Below, in pieces: positions 29,901 through 33,438 of a stretch of DNA of 49,529 nucleotides. The first letter of the stretch is position 1. Each line of letters begins with the position of its first letter. This DNA comes from Candidatus Gastranaerophilales bacterium. Lineage in GTDB: Bacteria > Cyanobacteriota > Vampirovibrionia > Gastranaerophilales > Gastranaerophilaceae. The stretch is taken from NCBI GenBank assembly GCA_944324235.1, contig CALUVN010000009.1, positions 1 to 49,529 of the forward strand, given 5' to 3'. The notes beneath the pieces are model-generated. The model was not told where the DNA came from. It saw only the letters and a program-made list of their open reading frames with translations, and did not search any database. The position numbers were made by a program, and so were the translations under genes.

Positions 29901-31169
29901 ATGAGGATTACACCGGTAAATCTCAACACTCACAGCTGCAGCCAGAATATCTGCGTGCAAAAAACAAAAAACAATAATAAGCAAAATGTAACCACAAACT
30001 ATCAGACAAAACAAAATTCAGCGCCATCATTCGGTTCATCAATGATAGAAGACATGTATTACTATTTTATACGGACACTGAATAACCGGAGAGAAGAACA
30101 AAGAAAAGCACAAATCCGCATGATAGACCAAAAAATACAGGATGACACAGCTATTCTTGCCAAACGGCTCGGCATTCCACAAAAAGAGGCTGCCGAAAAA
30201 TATAACGAATACATCATGATAGGGGGACTTAGACCAAGAGGAAGCGGACATGAACTGGGACTTAATAAAATCATGGGATATTCGCAAGAAAAACTTGATC
30301 TTATAAAAGACGGAATTACACCTGTTGTTATGCAGGTAAAAGCACATAAAAAAGGGGAAGAACTTCCACCGGATATTATTGTACCGAATGGAATACTGTT
30401 ATATGGTCCAACAGGTACCGGAAAAAGTTATATGGCAGATGCACTTCTCGAACATTTCAGTAAAAAAGATAAATTGATAGAAACAAAAGTAATCAACGTA
30501 CCATGGCAGTTCGGAGATACTGATGAAAATGTTGATTTAATATGCTATCCGTTTGAAGAAGCTAAAAAGCACCACAAAGAAAACGGCACACACACTATTA
30601 TACTTTTAAACAACATTGATGAAATGTTTTCAACGCCTAACATGGAATTGCTTCAGGGTGAATTTGAATACCAGACAAGAGATGCCGCAAAAAATGGTGT
30701 AACATGGATTTCTACAACAAATAATGTACAGGCATTCCCCCGCTGGATGTTTAATCCACTCCGCTACGGTATAGATATTCACATTGACAGAGTTGCATCC
30801 GATATAGAAAAATCTGCGACACTAAGCTACTTTATTGCAGCACAGGACAGAAAAGATTTAACTAATCATGATTTAATTCTGGACAGACTGAAAAAACAAG
30901 GCATAAATTTCTATCCTCCTGAAATAAAAAAAATTATGGATATTGTTGATAAAAAGTTATCGAAACTGGATCACGGAAACTATGAACGCGGATACTACAG
31001 AGCACCTGTTAAAAATGAAGATATTTTTGAAGCTATAAATACACTTCAAAATAAAGAAAAATATAAGTTTTACACCCCTGAAAACAATACAATAAATATT
31101 GATAAAATAGATAATTCAAAAGATGACATTTATATAGCAAGAAAAAGGGGCTATTATGATAAAGATTAA
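29901..31169 (+). CDS. AAA+ ATPase with lineage-type N-terminal targeting motif
   Basis: 422 residues. Walker A is exact at 169-176 (GPTGTGKS), Walker B at 236-241 (IILLNNIDE), a sensor-1-like Asn sits in WISTTNNVQ, and the Arg in FNPLRYGIDIHIDRV is a possible arginine finger. The first 45 residues are different: low-complexity, Asn/Gln-rich, ending SAPSFGSSM. Similar short 'xF[KGT][GA]' ends occur at the start of the two genes that follow. The partner gene overlaps by 14 nt and is a degenerate copy of the ATPase fold. ATPase remodelling of some envelope or secretion substrate is plausible but unproven. Confidence 0.8.
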   Translation: MRITPVNLNTHSCSQNICVQKTKNNNKQNVTTNYQTKQNSAPSFGSSMIEDMYYYFIRTLNNRREEQRKAQIRMIDQKIQDDTAILAKRLGIPQKEAAEKYNEYIMIGGLRPRGSGHELGLNKIMGYSQEKLDLIKDGITPVVMQVKAHKKGEELPPDIIVPNGILLYGPTGTGKSYMADALLEHFSKKDKLIETKVINVPWQFGDTDENVDLICYPFEEAKKHHKENGTHTIILLNNIDEMFSTPNMELLQGEFEYQTRDAAKNGVTWISTTNNVQAFPRWMFNPLRYGIDIHIDRVASDIEKSATLSYFIAAQDRKDLTNHDLILDRLKKQGINFYPPEIKKIMDIVDKKLSKLDHGNYERGYYRAPVKNEDIFEAINTLQNKEKYKFYTPENNTINIDKIDNSKDDIYIARKRGYYDKD

Positions 31170-32391
31170 TAATTATACGGTTTCTCATCCACAGCATTTT
31201 ACAGCAAAACAGACCTATAAGCCGCAAATAAATCCGAATGGAACTAATGATACACATAAGATTTCTAAAGGGGCAAAAACTGCCGGAACTGTGGCAGGAG
31301 TTGGTATTACAGGTGCACTCTGCATTTTGAACAGAAAAAAACTATCAAAAACATTTGGTGTCTTCGCCGGTTCTATTATGGATGGAGTATCAGGATTGTT
31401 TAACTCCAATGCTGTTAAACAAATTGATGTTAGCATGTACAAAGGGGTCAATTTGAAAGAACGCGCAAAAAAAGAATTTTTAGAAATGTTTATTGATGAA
31501 ATAAACAATCCGAATATAGTAGAAATTCAAACTGCGGAAGGTACTAAAGTCAAAAAAAGATTCACTCCGCCAAACGGATATATGTTATACGGACCAAAGT
31601 CTCAAGCTAAAGAAGAACTATTCAACTGGGCTCTGCAGGAAATGAAAAATGCAGGAGTTGAAATCATTGATGCGGGTAAAGGTAAATCCGTAAAAGATGC
31701 CCATAATGATATTTATAAAGCCTGGTGGGATATGTGGAAAAATACATCAGATGAGGAATTCCTACAACACGGCAAATACAAAGTTTTTGTACTAAGAGAT
31801 TTAGATGAATATCCGGCCTGTACAAACTTTTTAAAAGATTCTCCTGATACACACGATTGCTGCAAAAGACACGGCGTTATGTTATTTTATACCTGCAAAA
31901 AACCTAACACTATTGACCCTGCAGTAATAAGAGACGGAAGAGTTGATTATAAATTATTACCTGAACCTAAAGATGATGAACCTCTGGAAATCTGGAAAGA
32001 TTATCTTAATTCTATAACAAACAGTTATCCTCCTCTTGCATATAGACAAGTCGAATCTGCTAAAGAAATTTTATCTAAACGAGGACCGGAAGTTATGGAA
32101 GAGATGAAAGATTATCTTAAATATTCCATACCATATCAGCATCCCCGATTCGAAGATTCTCTTAATAAATGGCAAAATTATGTTACACAGACAGCTCAAA
32201 ATGTACGTCCTGACTGTATGATTAGTGAATTAGCGCACACTTTACAACTTATCATCGGCGGATGCAGACATGTTGATAAAAATATGAGTAAATTTAAGGC
32301 TATAAGACAAATGACCGAAGAAGCCATGCCGCCTGAACGTTTAGAACACTGGAAACGTCTTGTAGATGCCATTGAACTGGGTAAGATTTAA
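31156..32391 (+). CDS. Pseudo-AAA protein (degenerate Walker A) paired with the AAA+ ATPase
   Basis: 411 residues, aligned in layout to the ATPase upstream: YMLYGPKSQAKEE stands where GPTGTGKS should be, keeping one Lys but losing both key Gly and the Ser/Thr. VFVLRDLDE at the Walker B position keeps Asp-Glu. It can probably fold like an AAA domain but not hydrolyse ATP. Near the N-terminus, AGTVAGVGITGALCILNR (about 43-60) is a possible membrane anchor, after a motif HFTAKQ. The 14-nt overlap with the upstream gene implies obligatory co-translation, so a mixed hexamer is likely. Confidence 0.75.
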   Translation: MIKINNYTVSHPQHFTAKQTYKPQINPNGTNDTHKISKGAKTAGTVAGVGITGALCILNRKKLSKTFGVFAGSIMDGVSGLFNSNAVKQIDVSMYKGVNLKERAKKEFLEMFIDEINNPNIVEIQTAEGTKVKKRFTPPNGYMLYGPKSQAKEELFNWALQEMKNAGVEIIDAGKGKSVKDAHNDIYKAWWDMWKNTSDEEFLQHGKYKVFVLRDLDEYPACTNFLKDSPDTHDCCKRHGVMLFYTCKKPNTIDPAVIRDGRVDYKLLPEPKDDEPLEIWKDYLNSITNSYPPLAYRQVESAKEILSKRGPEVMEEMKDYLKYSIPYQHPRFEDSLNKWQNYVTQTAQNVRPDCMISELAHTLQLIIGGCRHVDKNMSKFKAIRQMTEEAMPPERLEHWKRLVDAIELGKI

Positions 32392-32406
32392 CAAAAAGGA
32401 CTTGAT

Positions 32407-33438
32407 ATGAAAATAACAGCCATAGCGCCAAATAACAATTATAACAAAACCGTATTTAAAGGCGAAAGCAGAACATACTACAAACAACGCTGCTCTTCCT
32501 ACACAACTGAGGAAAGGTTCTACCTTCCGGACAGATTAATTACGCTGCATCAACCTGATAGCAACGCAAGAGAGGTAACTGCTTACATAGCATCACCGTT
32601 TGAAATCGTATCTGAAGATAACCTTAACAAAAATAACTTTCTCCAGAGAAATGACCTCTTCCTGAGTCAGATAAAAAAAGACTATAGAAACGGATATTTC
32701 AGCTTTGCAGAAAATGCCAGAGAAGAAATAAAATTTCTCACAGGGTTAAGAGATGACTTAAAAACACGCTATGAAAGAAATAAAGAATTAATTTCAAGAT
32801 ATAATGACCGCAATGGCACAGAAATATTTTCCGACAATGAAGCACAGGAAAAATATCAGAACAGAAAAAAAGAAAAAGAATTAATAGCAAACGAAGAGAA
32901 AAAACAACTTGATAAGCTGAATTCACAAATCGAAACAGCTAAAGAACGCTATAACATGCTTGTGCCTCTTGATAACATAGGCGGCAAGAAAAATGACCTG
33001 ATGCGTCAAGAAAGTTATGTAAAATACAGTATTTCAACAGTAGAAAACCATATAAAATCCCGTCAGGAAACCATTGAACATATAAAAAATGAAATTAAAG
33101 AAACAAAACTGTTTTATGACAAAAAAATAGAACGAATAAACAAAACCGCAAATCACGAACAGCTTCCTGATACCAAAGAATTGCATAAACAAATAAAAAT
33201 CAGACAGGCAGAACGAATTAAACTGCTAAAAGAAGATTACAAAAATAAAAAAGAAGAACTCAAACAACAAATAGCAAATGAAGAATTAGAAATTCATAAG
33301 TGTAAACAAAAGAAAGCTAACCTTGATGCACGCCTGCAAGATATGTATAAAGAATTTGCAGAACTCGACAAACAGCTTGATGCTGCCTATGCAAAAGTCG
33401 CCGAATTCTATCAAAAGAATTATCCGGACTGGTTGTAA
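32407..33438 (+). CDS. Coiled-coil protein of the AAA cassette
   Basis: 343 residues. The start MKITAIAPNNNYNKTVFKGES shows the same 'FKG' style N-terminus as its neighbours. From about 100 to 330 it is almost continuous heptad-like helix rich in Lys/Glu/Gln (IKKDYRNGYFSFAENAREE, later KLLKEDYKNKKEELKQQIAN), with no Cys and no membrane segment after it. It lies 15 nt past the pseudo-AAA stop, in the same direction. It is likely a structural or adaptor subunit for the two AAA-fold proteins. No family known to me. Confidence 0.7.
   Translation: MKITAIAPNNNYNKTVFKGESRTYYKQRCSSYTTEERFYLPDRLITLHQPDSNAREVTAYIASPFEIVSEDNLNKNNFLQRNDLFLSQIKKDYRNGYFSFAENAREEIKFLTGLRDDLKTRYERNKELISRYNDRNGTEIFSDNEAQEKYQNRKKEKELIANEEKKQLDKLNSQIETAKERYNMLVPLDNIGGKKNDLMRQESYVKYSISTVENHIKSRQETIEHIKNEIKETKLFYDKKIERINKTANHEQLPDTKELHKQIKIRQAERIKLLKEDYKNKKEELKQQIANEELEIHKCKQKKANLDARLQDMYKEFAELDKQLDAAYAKVAEFYQKNYPDWL

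What the first reader, a model, noticed from the sequence alone, without database searches (positions are those of the whole stretch)
29901..33438. Three-gene cassette: AAA+ ATPase, degenerate AAA partner and coiled-coil protein with similar N-termini
Seen: overlapping genes 1-2 and a 15-nt gap to gene 3; exact Walker motifs in gene 1, GPKSQAKEE in place of Walker A in gene 2; continuous coiled-coil in gene 3; short Asn/Tyr-rich N-termini ending PSFGS, HFTAK and VFKGE. I know of no described system with this set. Inferred: a mixed AAA ring with a filament or adaptor, perhaps for envelope or secretion work, and possibly a new lineage-specific machine.
Basis: partly seen in the sequence, partly recalled or inferred. 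Interest (0 to 1): 0.7.

Follow-up and report, generated by a model that had tools for sequence, protein, structure and literature searches.

The report
Membrane-tethered AAA pair lacking hydrolysis motifs
Some gut bacteria of the order Gastranaerophilales carry a conserved three-gene set encoding two paired ring-ATPase-like proteins, neither of which keeps a complete ATP-splitting site, plus a coiled-coil partner, so it probably works as an ATP-binding scaffold or switch at the membrane rather than as an ordinary motor.

Summary
The three genes are real. In 12 loci from four genera of one Gastranaerophilales family they occur together in the same order, gene 1 and gene 2 overlapping and gene 3 just downstream (one locus is split over two contigs; gene 1 is broken or shortened in three). 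Host: Candidatus Scatousia.

Two parts of the reading change. (1) Gene 1 does not have "exact Walker motifs": Walker A is intact, but the Walker B Asp-Glu is Asn-Asn (N237 N238), and the catalytic Glu is absent in all 11 readable orthologues. Gene 2 has GPxSKAKEE for Walker A and an invariant Arg (R214) for the Walker B Asp, yet keeps both Arg fingers (R259, R262) in all 18 relatives. A weakly hydrophobic helix could anchor it. Best model: gene 1 binds ATP, gene 2 supplies Arg fingers in trans, and the nucleotide holds or switches a membrane-linked assembly, with gene 3 as partner. (2) The similar N-termini are not cassette-specific: a disordered, acid-poor tag ending in an FxG-like motif marks about 4% of proteins sampled in this genome.

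No curated family, PDB profile or paper found describes the cassette. Assembly, ATP binding and function are inferred. New variant of a known kind (heteromeric AAA with degenerate subunits).

The parts
29901..31169 (+). gene 1: AAA protein, 422 aa, intact Walker A, degenerate Walker B
   Evidence: PF00004 E 1.4e-9; top VIA-align row Vps4-like 4d82, Z 18.9, 253 aligned, rmsd 4.4
29901..30038 (+). gene 1 N-terminal tag (residues 1-46, ends PSFGS; F44 codon 30030-30032), predicted disordered
   Evidence: M1 and F44 are the only invariant residues among the first 59 in 9 orthologues; pLDDT < 50 for residues 1-57
30405..30428 (+). gene 1 Walker A GPTGTGKS (169-176)
   Evidence: G169, G174, K175 invariant in 24 relatives
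30501..30530 (+). gene 1 PWQFGDTDEN (201-210), likely place of pore loop 1, with W202
   Evidence: PWxxGDT(D)EN kept in 8 of the 9 aligned orthologues, not in G081; assignment to pore loop 1 is inferred from sequence
30609..30614 (+). gene 1 N237 N238 in place of the Walker B Asp-Glu
   Evidence: NN in 7 of 11 readable orthologues, EK, EG, ED, DD in the rest; Glu never at the second place
30762..30764 (+). gene 1 R288, second Arg-finger place; the first is lost (N285)
31156..32391 (+). gene 2: degenerate AAA protein, 411 aa, with N-terminal hydrophobic stretch
   Evidence: (Z 13.8, 151 aligned, rmsd 3.2)
31198..31206 (+). gene 2 tag motif F15-T-A
31273..31329 (+). gene 2 candidate Gly/Ala-rich transmembrane helix (residues 40-58)
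   Evidence: best 19-residue hydropathy lies near the N-terminus in 17 relatives (1.1-2.3; 1.43 here); AlphaFold leaves residues 1-82 below pLDDT 50
31591..31617 (+). gene 2 GPKSQAKEE (146-154) in place of Walker A
   Evidence: degenerate in all 18 relatives aligned
31795..31797 (+). gene 2 R214 in place of the Walker B Asp
   Evidence: invariant in 18 of 18; directly after strand 209-213
31930..31941 (+). gene 2 Arg-finger pair R259/R262 (RDGR)
   Evidence: both invariant in 18 of 18
32407..33438 (+). gene 3: 343 aa, conserved N-terminal part and helical/coiled-coil region
32455..32463 (+). gene 3 tag motif F17-K18-G19
   Evidence: F17 and G19 invariant, K18 nearly so, in 10 sequences of 4 genera
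33418..33435 (+). gene 3 C-terminal NYPDWL
   Evidence: an ending like FYxxNYPxWL is kept, with variation, in all 10 aligned sequences

Best explanation
Genes 1 and 2 encode two subunits of one heteromeric AAA assembly. Gene 1 binds ATP through its intact Walker A but should hydrolyse it slowly or not at all, because the Walker B acids are replaced (Asn-Asn here). Gene 2 should not bind nucleotide productively; it sits next to gene 1 and inserts two Arg fingers (R259, R262) into gene 1's pocket. Its N-terminal helix would tie the assembly to the inner membrane. ATP would act as glue or switch, not fuel. Gene 3, a mostly helical protein with a conserved NYPxWL end, is the partner or client that the assembly holds. 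The three N-terminal tags place the proteins in a larger tagged class of this lineage, perhaps for common targeting. Shown by sequence: motif states, conservation, homology of 1 and 2, co-inheritance, gene order. Inferred: hetero-assembly, ATP binding without turnover, membrane anchoring, gene 3 as partner, any role of the tag.
For: Walker B loss in gene 1 in every readable orthologue with Walker A invariant. Gene 2: degenerate Walker A, with R214, R259, R262 invariant in 18 of 18; keeping Arg fingers in a subunit without a working site fits a role in trans. The predicted models end the Walker B strand just before N237 and R214; hhalign pairs the same columns. AAA tree: gene 2 one clade (99/98), gene 1 of the three-gene loci one clade (100/99), both with G081 branching first. 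Conserved order: overlap of 4-50 nt, then a gap of 12-66 nt, in 8 measured loci. Hydrophobic stretch in gene 2 relatives. Purifying selection.
Against: No complex prediction or biochemistry. Which subunit neighbours which is a guess. The helix of gene 2 is only weakly hydrophobic in the window genus (1.1-1.5) and is not modelled as a helix. Acids vary in the Walker B of g6 and g21 relatives (EK, EG, ED, DD), so weak hydrolysis is not excluded there. Gene 1 keeps an aromatic at the likely pore-loop place, which would fit substrate handling. The g57 and G032 pairs lack gene 3, so gene 3 is not essential to the pair.
Confidence: 0.5

Rival explanations
1. A working mixed AAA motor: gene 1 (or gene 1 with another AAA protein of the cell) hydrolyses ATP through a non-canonical site and pulls a substrate, with gene 2 as anchor and Arg-finger donor and gene 3 as adaptor. 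This is closest to the first reader's idea.
For: Walker A invariant; sensor-1-like TTN (in the window genus) and the PWxxGDTDEN loop mostly kept; classical AAA fold; Walker B mutants of some AAA subunits leave activity in mixed rings (PMC9265785).
Against: Both Walker B positions are changed in gene 1 of the window genus (N237 N238) and the catalytic Glu is absent in all 11 readable orthologues; gene 2 cannot replace it.
Confidence: 0.2
2. Exported cargo: the N-terminal tag is a secretion signal, and the three proteins act outside the cell, delivered by the type III export core that these flagellin-less genomes keep.
For: Tag regions are poor in Asp and Glu (0.46-0.48 of background) and rich in N, Q, P, S, I, T, as known for type III signals (own knowledge); the own genome has FlhA-like, FliH-like, FliP and FlhB genes but no flagellin hit; 7 of 52 tagged proteins scanned have ankyrin repeats; two tagged genes lie next to the FlhB gene.
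Against: Correlation only. No tag in sampled stretches of other orders that have FlhB (0 of 98 proteins). A tagged GH77 enzyme may well be cytosolic. Acid-poor disordered N-termini are not specific to secretion.
Confidence: 0.15
3. An accessory conflict or defence cassette, kept and lost like other islands.
For: Patchy presence (strong gene 2 matches in 11 of 288 family genomes), different neighbours between genera, changed surroundings in G003 and absence in G002.
Against: PADLOC matches are weak, on P-loop or coiled-coil stretches; no nuclease, protease or other toxin-like domain in the three proteins; agreement of the gene 1 and gene 2 trees.
Confidence: 0.08

Closest known systems
Pex1/Pex6 D1 ring (peroxisomal AAA heterohexamer)
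   Same: Two related AAA proteins in one assembly; D1 domains keep a Walker A Lys but lack a full Walker B and Arg-finger set and are thought to bind nucleotide without driving force (PMC9265785); tie to a membrane.
   Different: Pex1/Pex6 carry a second, active D2 ring; here each protein has one AAA domain and neither is complete. No kinship beyond the AAA fold was tested.
FtsH/FtsHi heteromeric complexes of chloroplasts
   Same: Membrane AAA complexes with members that lost catalytic residues; Foldseek ranks FtsH first for gene 2.
   Different: No HExxH protease motif in genes 1 or 2 (read from sequence); the hydrophobic stretch is in gene 2 but not in gene 1 of the three-gene loci; FtsHi are described as pseudo-proteases (title of PMC8197885), so the loss there is of the protease site.
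Clamp-loader subunits (RFC, bacterial delta-prime)
   Same: A subunit without a working site that donates an Arg finger to a neighbour (own knowledge); RFC chains appear among the gene 2 fold matches (Z about 13, 135-144 aligned, rmsd 3.0-3.5).
   Different: Tags, hydrophobic stretch, and no catalytic Glu in the binding subunit; no sign of a DNA role.
Vps4/CdvC and CDC48-like classical AAA proteins
   Same: Best sequence and fold neighbours of gene 1.
   Different: 35 bits against a CdvC cut-off of 650; Walker B not conserved; N-terminal helices and tag of its own.

Membership tests
Classical AAA family (PF00004) | Profile match over the curated cut-off | tested here: met
   Gene 1: 38.9 bits against 21.2. 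Gene 2 has no PF00004 match up to E 1, but has profile-profile homology to gene 1 and an AAA fold match.
Classical AAA family (PF00004) | Walker A GxxxxGK[ST] | tested here: met
   Gene 1 only; in gene 2 degenerate in all 18 relatives.
Active AAA ATPase | Walker B hhhhDE with catalytic Glu | tested here: not met
   Gene 1 N237 N238, no Glu at that place in 11 orthologues; gene 2 R214.
Active AAA ATPase | Arg fingers of the second region of homology | tested here: met
   Gene 2 R259 and R262 in 18 of 18; gene 1 keeps only R288.
CdvC/Vps4 | NCBIfam NF041006 cut-off | tested here: not met
   35 bits against 650.
FtsH/FtsHi | TIGR01241 cut-off | tested here: not met
   Gene 1 14.8 bits against 600; gene 2 no match listed.
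FtsH | HExxH metalloprotease motif | tested here: not met
   No HExxH in either translation (read by eye).
Pex1/Pex6-like heterohexamer | Heterohexamer of two AAA subunits | not testable with these tools
   No complex prediction available; co-inheritance only.
Type III secretion substrate | Export by a type III apparatus | not testable with these tools
   Composition and presence of an export core only.
Known anti-phage defence system | Clear match to a PADLOC model | tested here: inconclusive
   Best E 8e-4 (LmuB, gene 3 coiled-coil part) and 0.0014 (mad8, P-loop of gene 1); gene 2 none.

The most novel reading that the evidence does not exclude
Gastranaerophilales use a lineage-specific N-terminal tag (acid-poor, ending in an FxG-like motif) to send a few per cent of their proteins through a retained, flagellin-less type III export core, and this AAA cassette is one of its multi-protein cargoes or its membrane-bound sorting platform.
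Probability: 0.12. Interest if true: 0.85.

Novelty: new variant of a known kind. Interest (0 to 1): 0.55.

Why it matters
AAA assemblies are usually understood as ATP-driven motors. A conserved bacterial pair in which one subunit has lost the Walker B acids and the other the nucleotide site, while the second keeps both Arg fingers, would be a natural case of AAA proteins used as an ATP-bound scaffold or switch, and it is small enough for direct structural work. The wider N-terminal tag, if it is a sorting signal, would point to an unrecognised protein-targeting route in a common but little-cultured group of gut bacteria.

Tried and rejected
Intact-plus-dead AAA pair: rejected once the Walker B register was fixed by alignment, structure and hhalign. 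Cassette-specific N-terminal docking code: rejected, because the tag occurs on many unrelated proteins. My first fixed-motif scan of the tag on the random sample gave only a moderate signal (17 hits in residues 5-65 of 348 proteins, 0.81 per 1000 residues against 0.28 further in). A stricter rule, with acid-poor and non-hydrophobic limits chosen after seeing tagged proteins, gives 13 of 303 against 1 of 303 mock, so that contrast is partly circular. The same rule gives 6 of 293 in random stretches of other genomes of the family, several of them doubtful, against 4 mock, so the 4% figure holds for this genome only. Tag tied to the type III core: not supported across orders, since sampled genomes of other orders with FlhB show none (0 of 98). 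Solved structures: gene 3 profile hits are coiled coils of unrelated proteins. Pfam, NCBIfam, PHROGs and PADLOC give no convincing family for genes 2 and 3. Fold comparison covers about residues 75-411 of gene 1 and 99-294 of gene 2; other parts, such as the C-terminal part of gene 2, were barely tested. Literature searches for tag, cassette or type III secretion in this group found nothing on point; the library lacks most subscription journals. An empty site in G002 could not be shown: it lacks a close copy of the flanking Mur ligase gene too. Promoter and terminator scans of the region were uninformative.
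Full report
Where it is. The window is one whole contig of a genome that falls in the order Gastranaerophilales: a scan of named genomes finds gene 1 at 99% identity in Candidatus Scatousia excrementipullorum and at 71-72% in two other Gastranaerophilales assemblies.

Co-occurrence. In 59 relatives, strong hits to genes 1, 2 and 3 are found only in G000, G001 and G003 of the same genus, in the same order. A profile of gene 2 run over 288 genomes of the family matches in 27, of which 11 are strong (E below 1e-20). Fetching those places shows gene 1, gene 2 and gene 3 together in genera g56 (G139, G157, G201), g21 (G081) and g6 (G228, G286 twice, G292, G303), beside the window genus: 12 loci in all, counting G157, whose genes 1 and 2 lie on different contigs. 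Some are incomplete: gene 1 is broken into two ORFs in G286:C13 and is shortened in G286:C83 and G303, and gene 3 of G286:C13 is shortened. In G081 the third gene is placed and tagged alike but is not significant against the gene 3 profile, so its membership rests on position and a 15% alignment. Spacing in eight measured loci: overlap of 4-50 nt, then 12-66 nt; G139 has a second, nearly identical gene 2 in tandem. The neighbours differ between genera. Genus g57 and G032 have a gene 2 plus gene 1 pair in reversed order, without gene 3. dN/dS against G001 is 0.09, 0.23 and 0.12 for genes 1, 2, 3 (NG86; dS about 1.5-2.1, so only the sense of the ratio counts).

Gene 1 is not a canonical ATPase. 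It matches PF00004 and its model resembles Vps4-like and other classical AAA proteins (top row Z 18.9, 253 aligned, rmsd 4.4; many rows tied). Walker A is intact and invariant. In the alignment of nine orthologues the hhhhDE of Walker B reads IILLNN in the window, NN in six other loci, EK in G228 and DD in G081; the two G286 copies read EG and ED. The catalytic Glu is thus absent in all 11 readable sequences. Two further checks fix the register: the predicted strand is 231-236 and ends just before N237, and hhalign pairs gene 1 NN with gene 2 RD. The first Arg-finger place is lost, the second (R288) mostly kept.

Gene 2 is a degenerate AAA protein that keeps its Arg fingers. Walker A reads GPxSKAKEE or similar; R214 stands at the Walker B Asp; R259 and R262 are kept. 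R214, R259 and R262 are invariant in all 18 relatives, including the distant g57 and G032 ones. The AAA core is modelled with high confidence, and residues 99-294 match AAA structures (Z 13.8, 151 aligned, rmsd 3.2); the C-terminal part was barely covered by that comparison. The most hydrophobic stretch lies near the N-terminus in all 17 relatives measured, with mean hydropathy 1.1-2.3. This suits a single weak membrane helix but does not prove one.

Evolution. In a tree of AAA regions gene 2 sequences form one clade (99/98), and gene 1 of the three-gene loci form one clade (100/99), both with G081 branching first. This is what a pair inherited together within the family would give. Other adjacent AAA pairs arose apart: on G000 contig 15 two neighbours are 46% identical, one with intact and one with altered motifs (GKK in Walker A, DK in Walker B). 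Why adjacent AAA duplicates with one decayed site recur in this group is open.

Gene 3. Ten sequences in four genera share an F-K-G type motif in the tag (Q for K in G003), a part around IYIASPFEI in most, a helical region, and an end like FYxxNYPxWL. Profile hits to solved structures are ordinary coiled coils. The coil is interrupted, so 'continuous' is too strong.

The N-terminal tag. Proteins with an acid-poor, N/Q/P/S/I/T-rich start that ends in a motif such as VSFKG or PSFGS are common in the islands around AAA genes. On 20 random stretches of G000 a strict rule finds 13 of 303 proteins, against 1 of 303 for the same rule applied from residue 73 onward (Fisher p 0.0016). The rule was shaped on tagged proteins, some from this genome, so the p-value is optimistic. 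In other orders the rule gives 0 of 98 proteins where FlhB is present and 3 doubtful hits of 264 where it is absent. Among 52 tagged proteins scanned, 7 have ankyrin repeats and 6 match the AAA family (many were taken from AAA islands, so the AAA share is biased). The tag thus cannot be read as a signal of this cassette alone.

Type III export core. All but two of 59 relatives hold an FlhA/SctV-type protein. The own genome has one full-length copy, below the cut-offs for both FlhA and SctV, next to a FliH-like gene; the equivalent place in G009 also has a FliF/SctJ-like gene. FliP and FlhB are present, flagellin gives no hit, and two rod/hook-type domains are found. That most Gastranaerophilales genomes then known kept only a subset of flagella genes was reported by Soo et al. 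(PMC4040986). The link between tag and export core is an idea, not a finding.

Mechanism and confidence. The motif pattern, homology, co-inheritance and order are shown. That proteins 1 and 2 form one assembly in which gene 2 completes the gene 1 pocket is inferred from retained Arg fingers and conserved neighbourhood. That ATP acts as a holder or switch follows from the loss of Walker B acids, by analogy with the D1 ring of Pex1/Pex6 (PMC9265785). I put this reading at 0.5; the anatomy itself I hold to be firm.

Noticed in passing
L156:6529-10457 (G000:C55), L216 (G000:C19) and L217 (G000:C22): A genome without flagellin keeps a type III export core: divergent FlhA/SctV-like, FliH-like, FliP, FlhB and, by eye, likely FliQ/FliR genes. 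Function unknown.
   Followed up: partly
L157:8085-11665 (G000:C20), also L218 and L219: A 491-aa protein matches only the C-terminal half of FlhA and lies next to a GH77 4-alpha-glucanotransferase with a tag-like N-terminus in three genomes of the genus.
   Followed up: no
L040:9014-11399 (G000:C15): A second adjacent AAA pair, 46% identical to each other, one intact and one with altered Walker motifs: a separate duplication with a similar outcome.
   Followed up: partly
L042, L043, L044, L045, L046: Islands of consecutive tagged genes with AAA and ankyrin-repeat proteins, some over 1300 aa.
   Followed up: partly
L131:7567-10116: Tandem, nearly identical copies of gene 2 in G139.
   Followed up: no
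L138:7258-8464: In one of two cassette copies in G286 gene 1 is split into two overlapping ORFs: decay or assembly error.
   Followed up: no
L037:9231-9473 and L038:7926-8174: An 80-82 aa Lys/Glu-rich protein lies directly upstream of the cassette in G001 and G003; the window has no such ORF there.
   Followed up: partly
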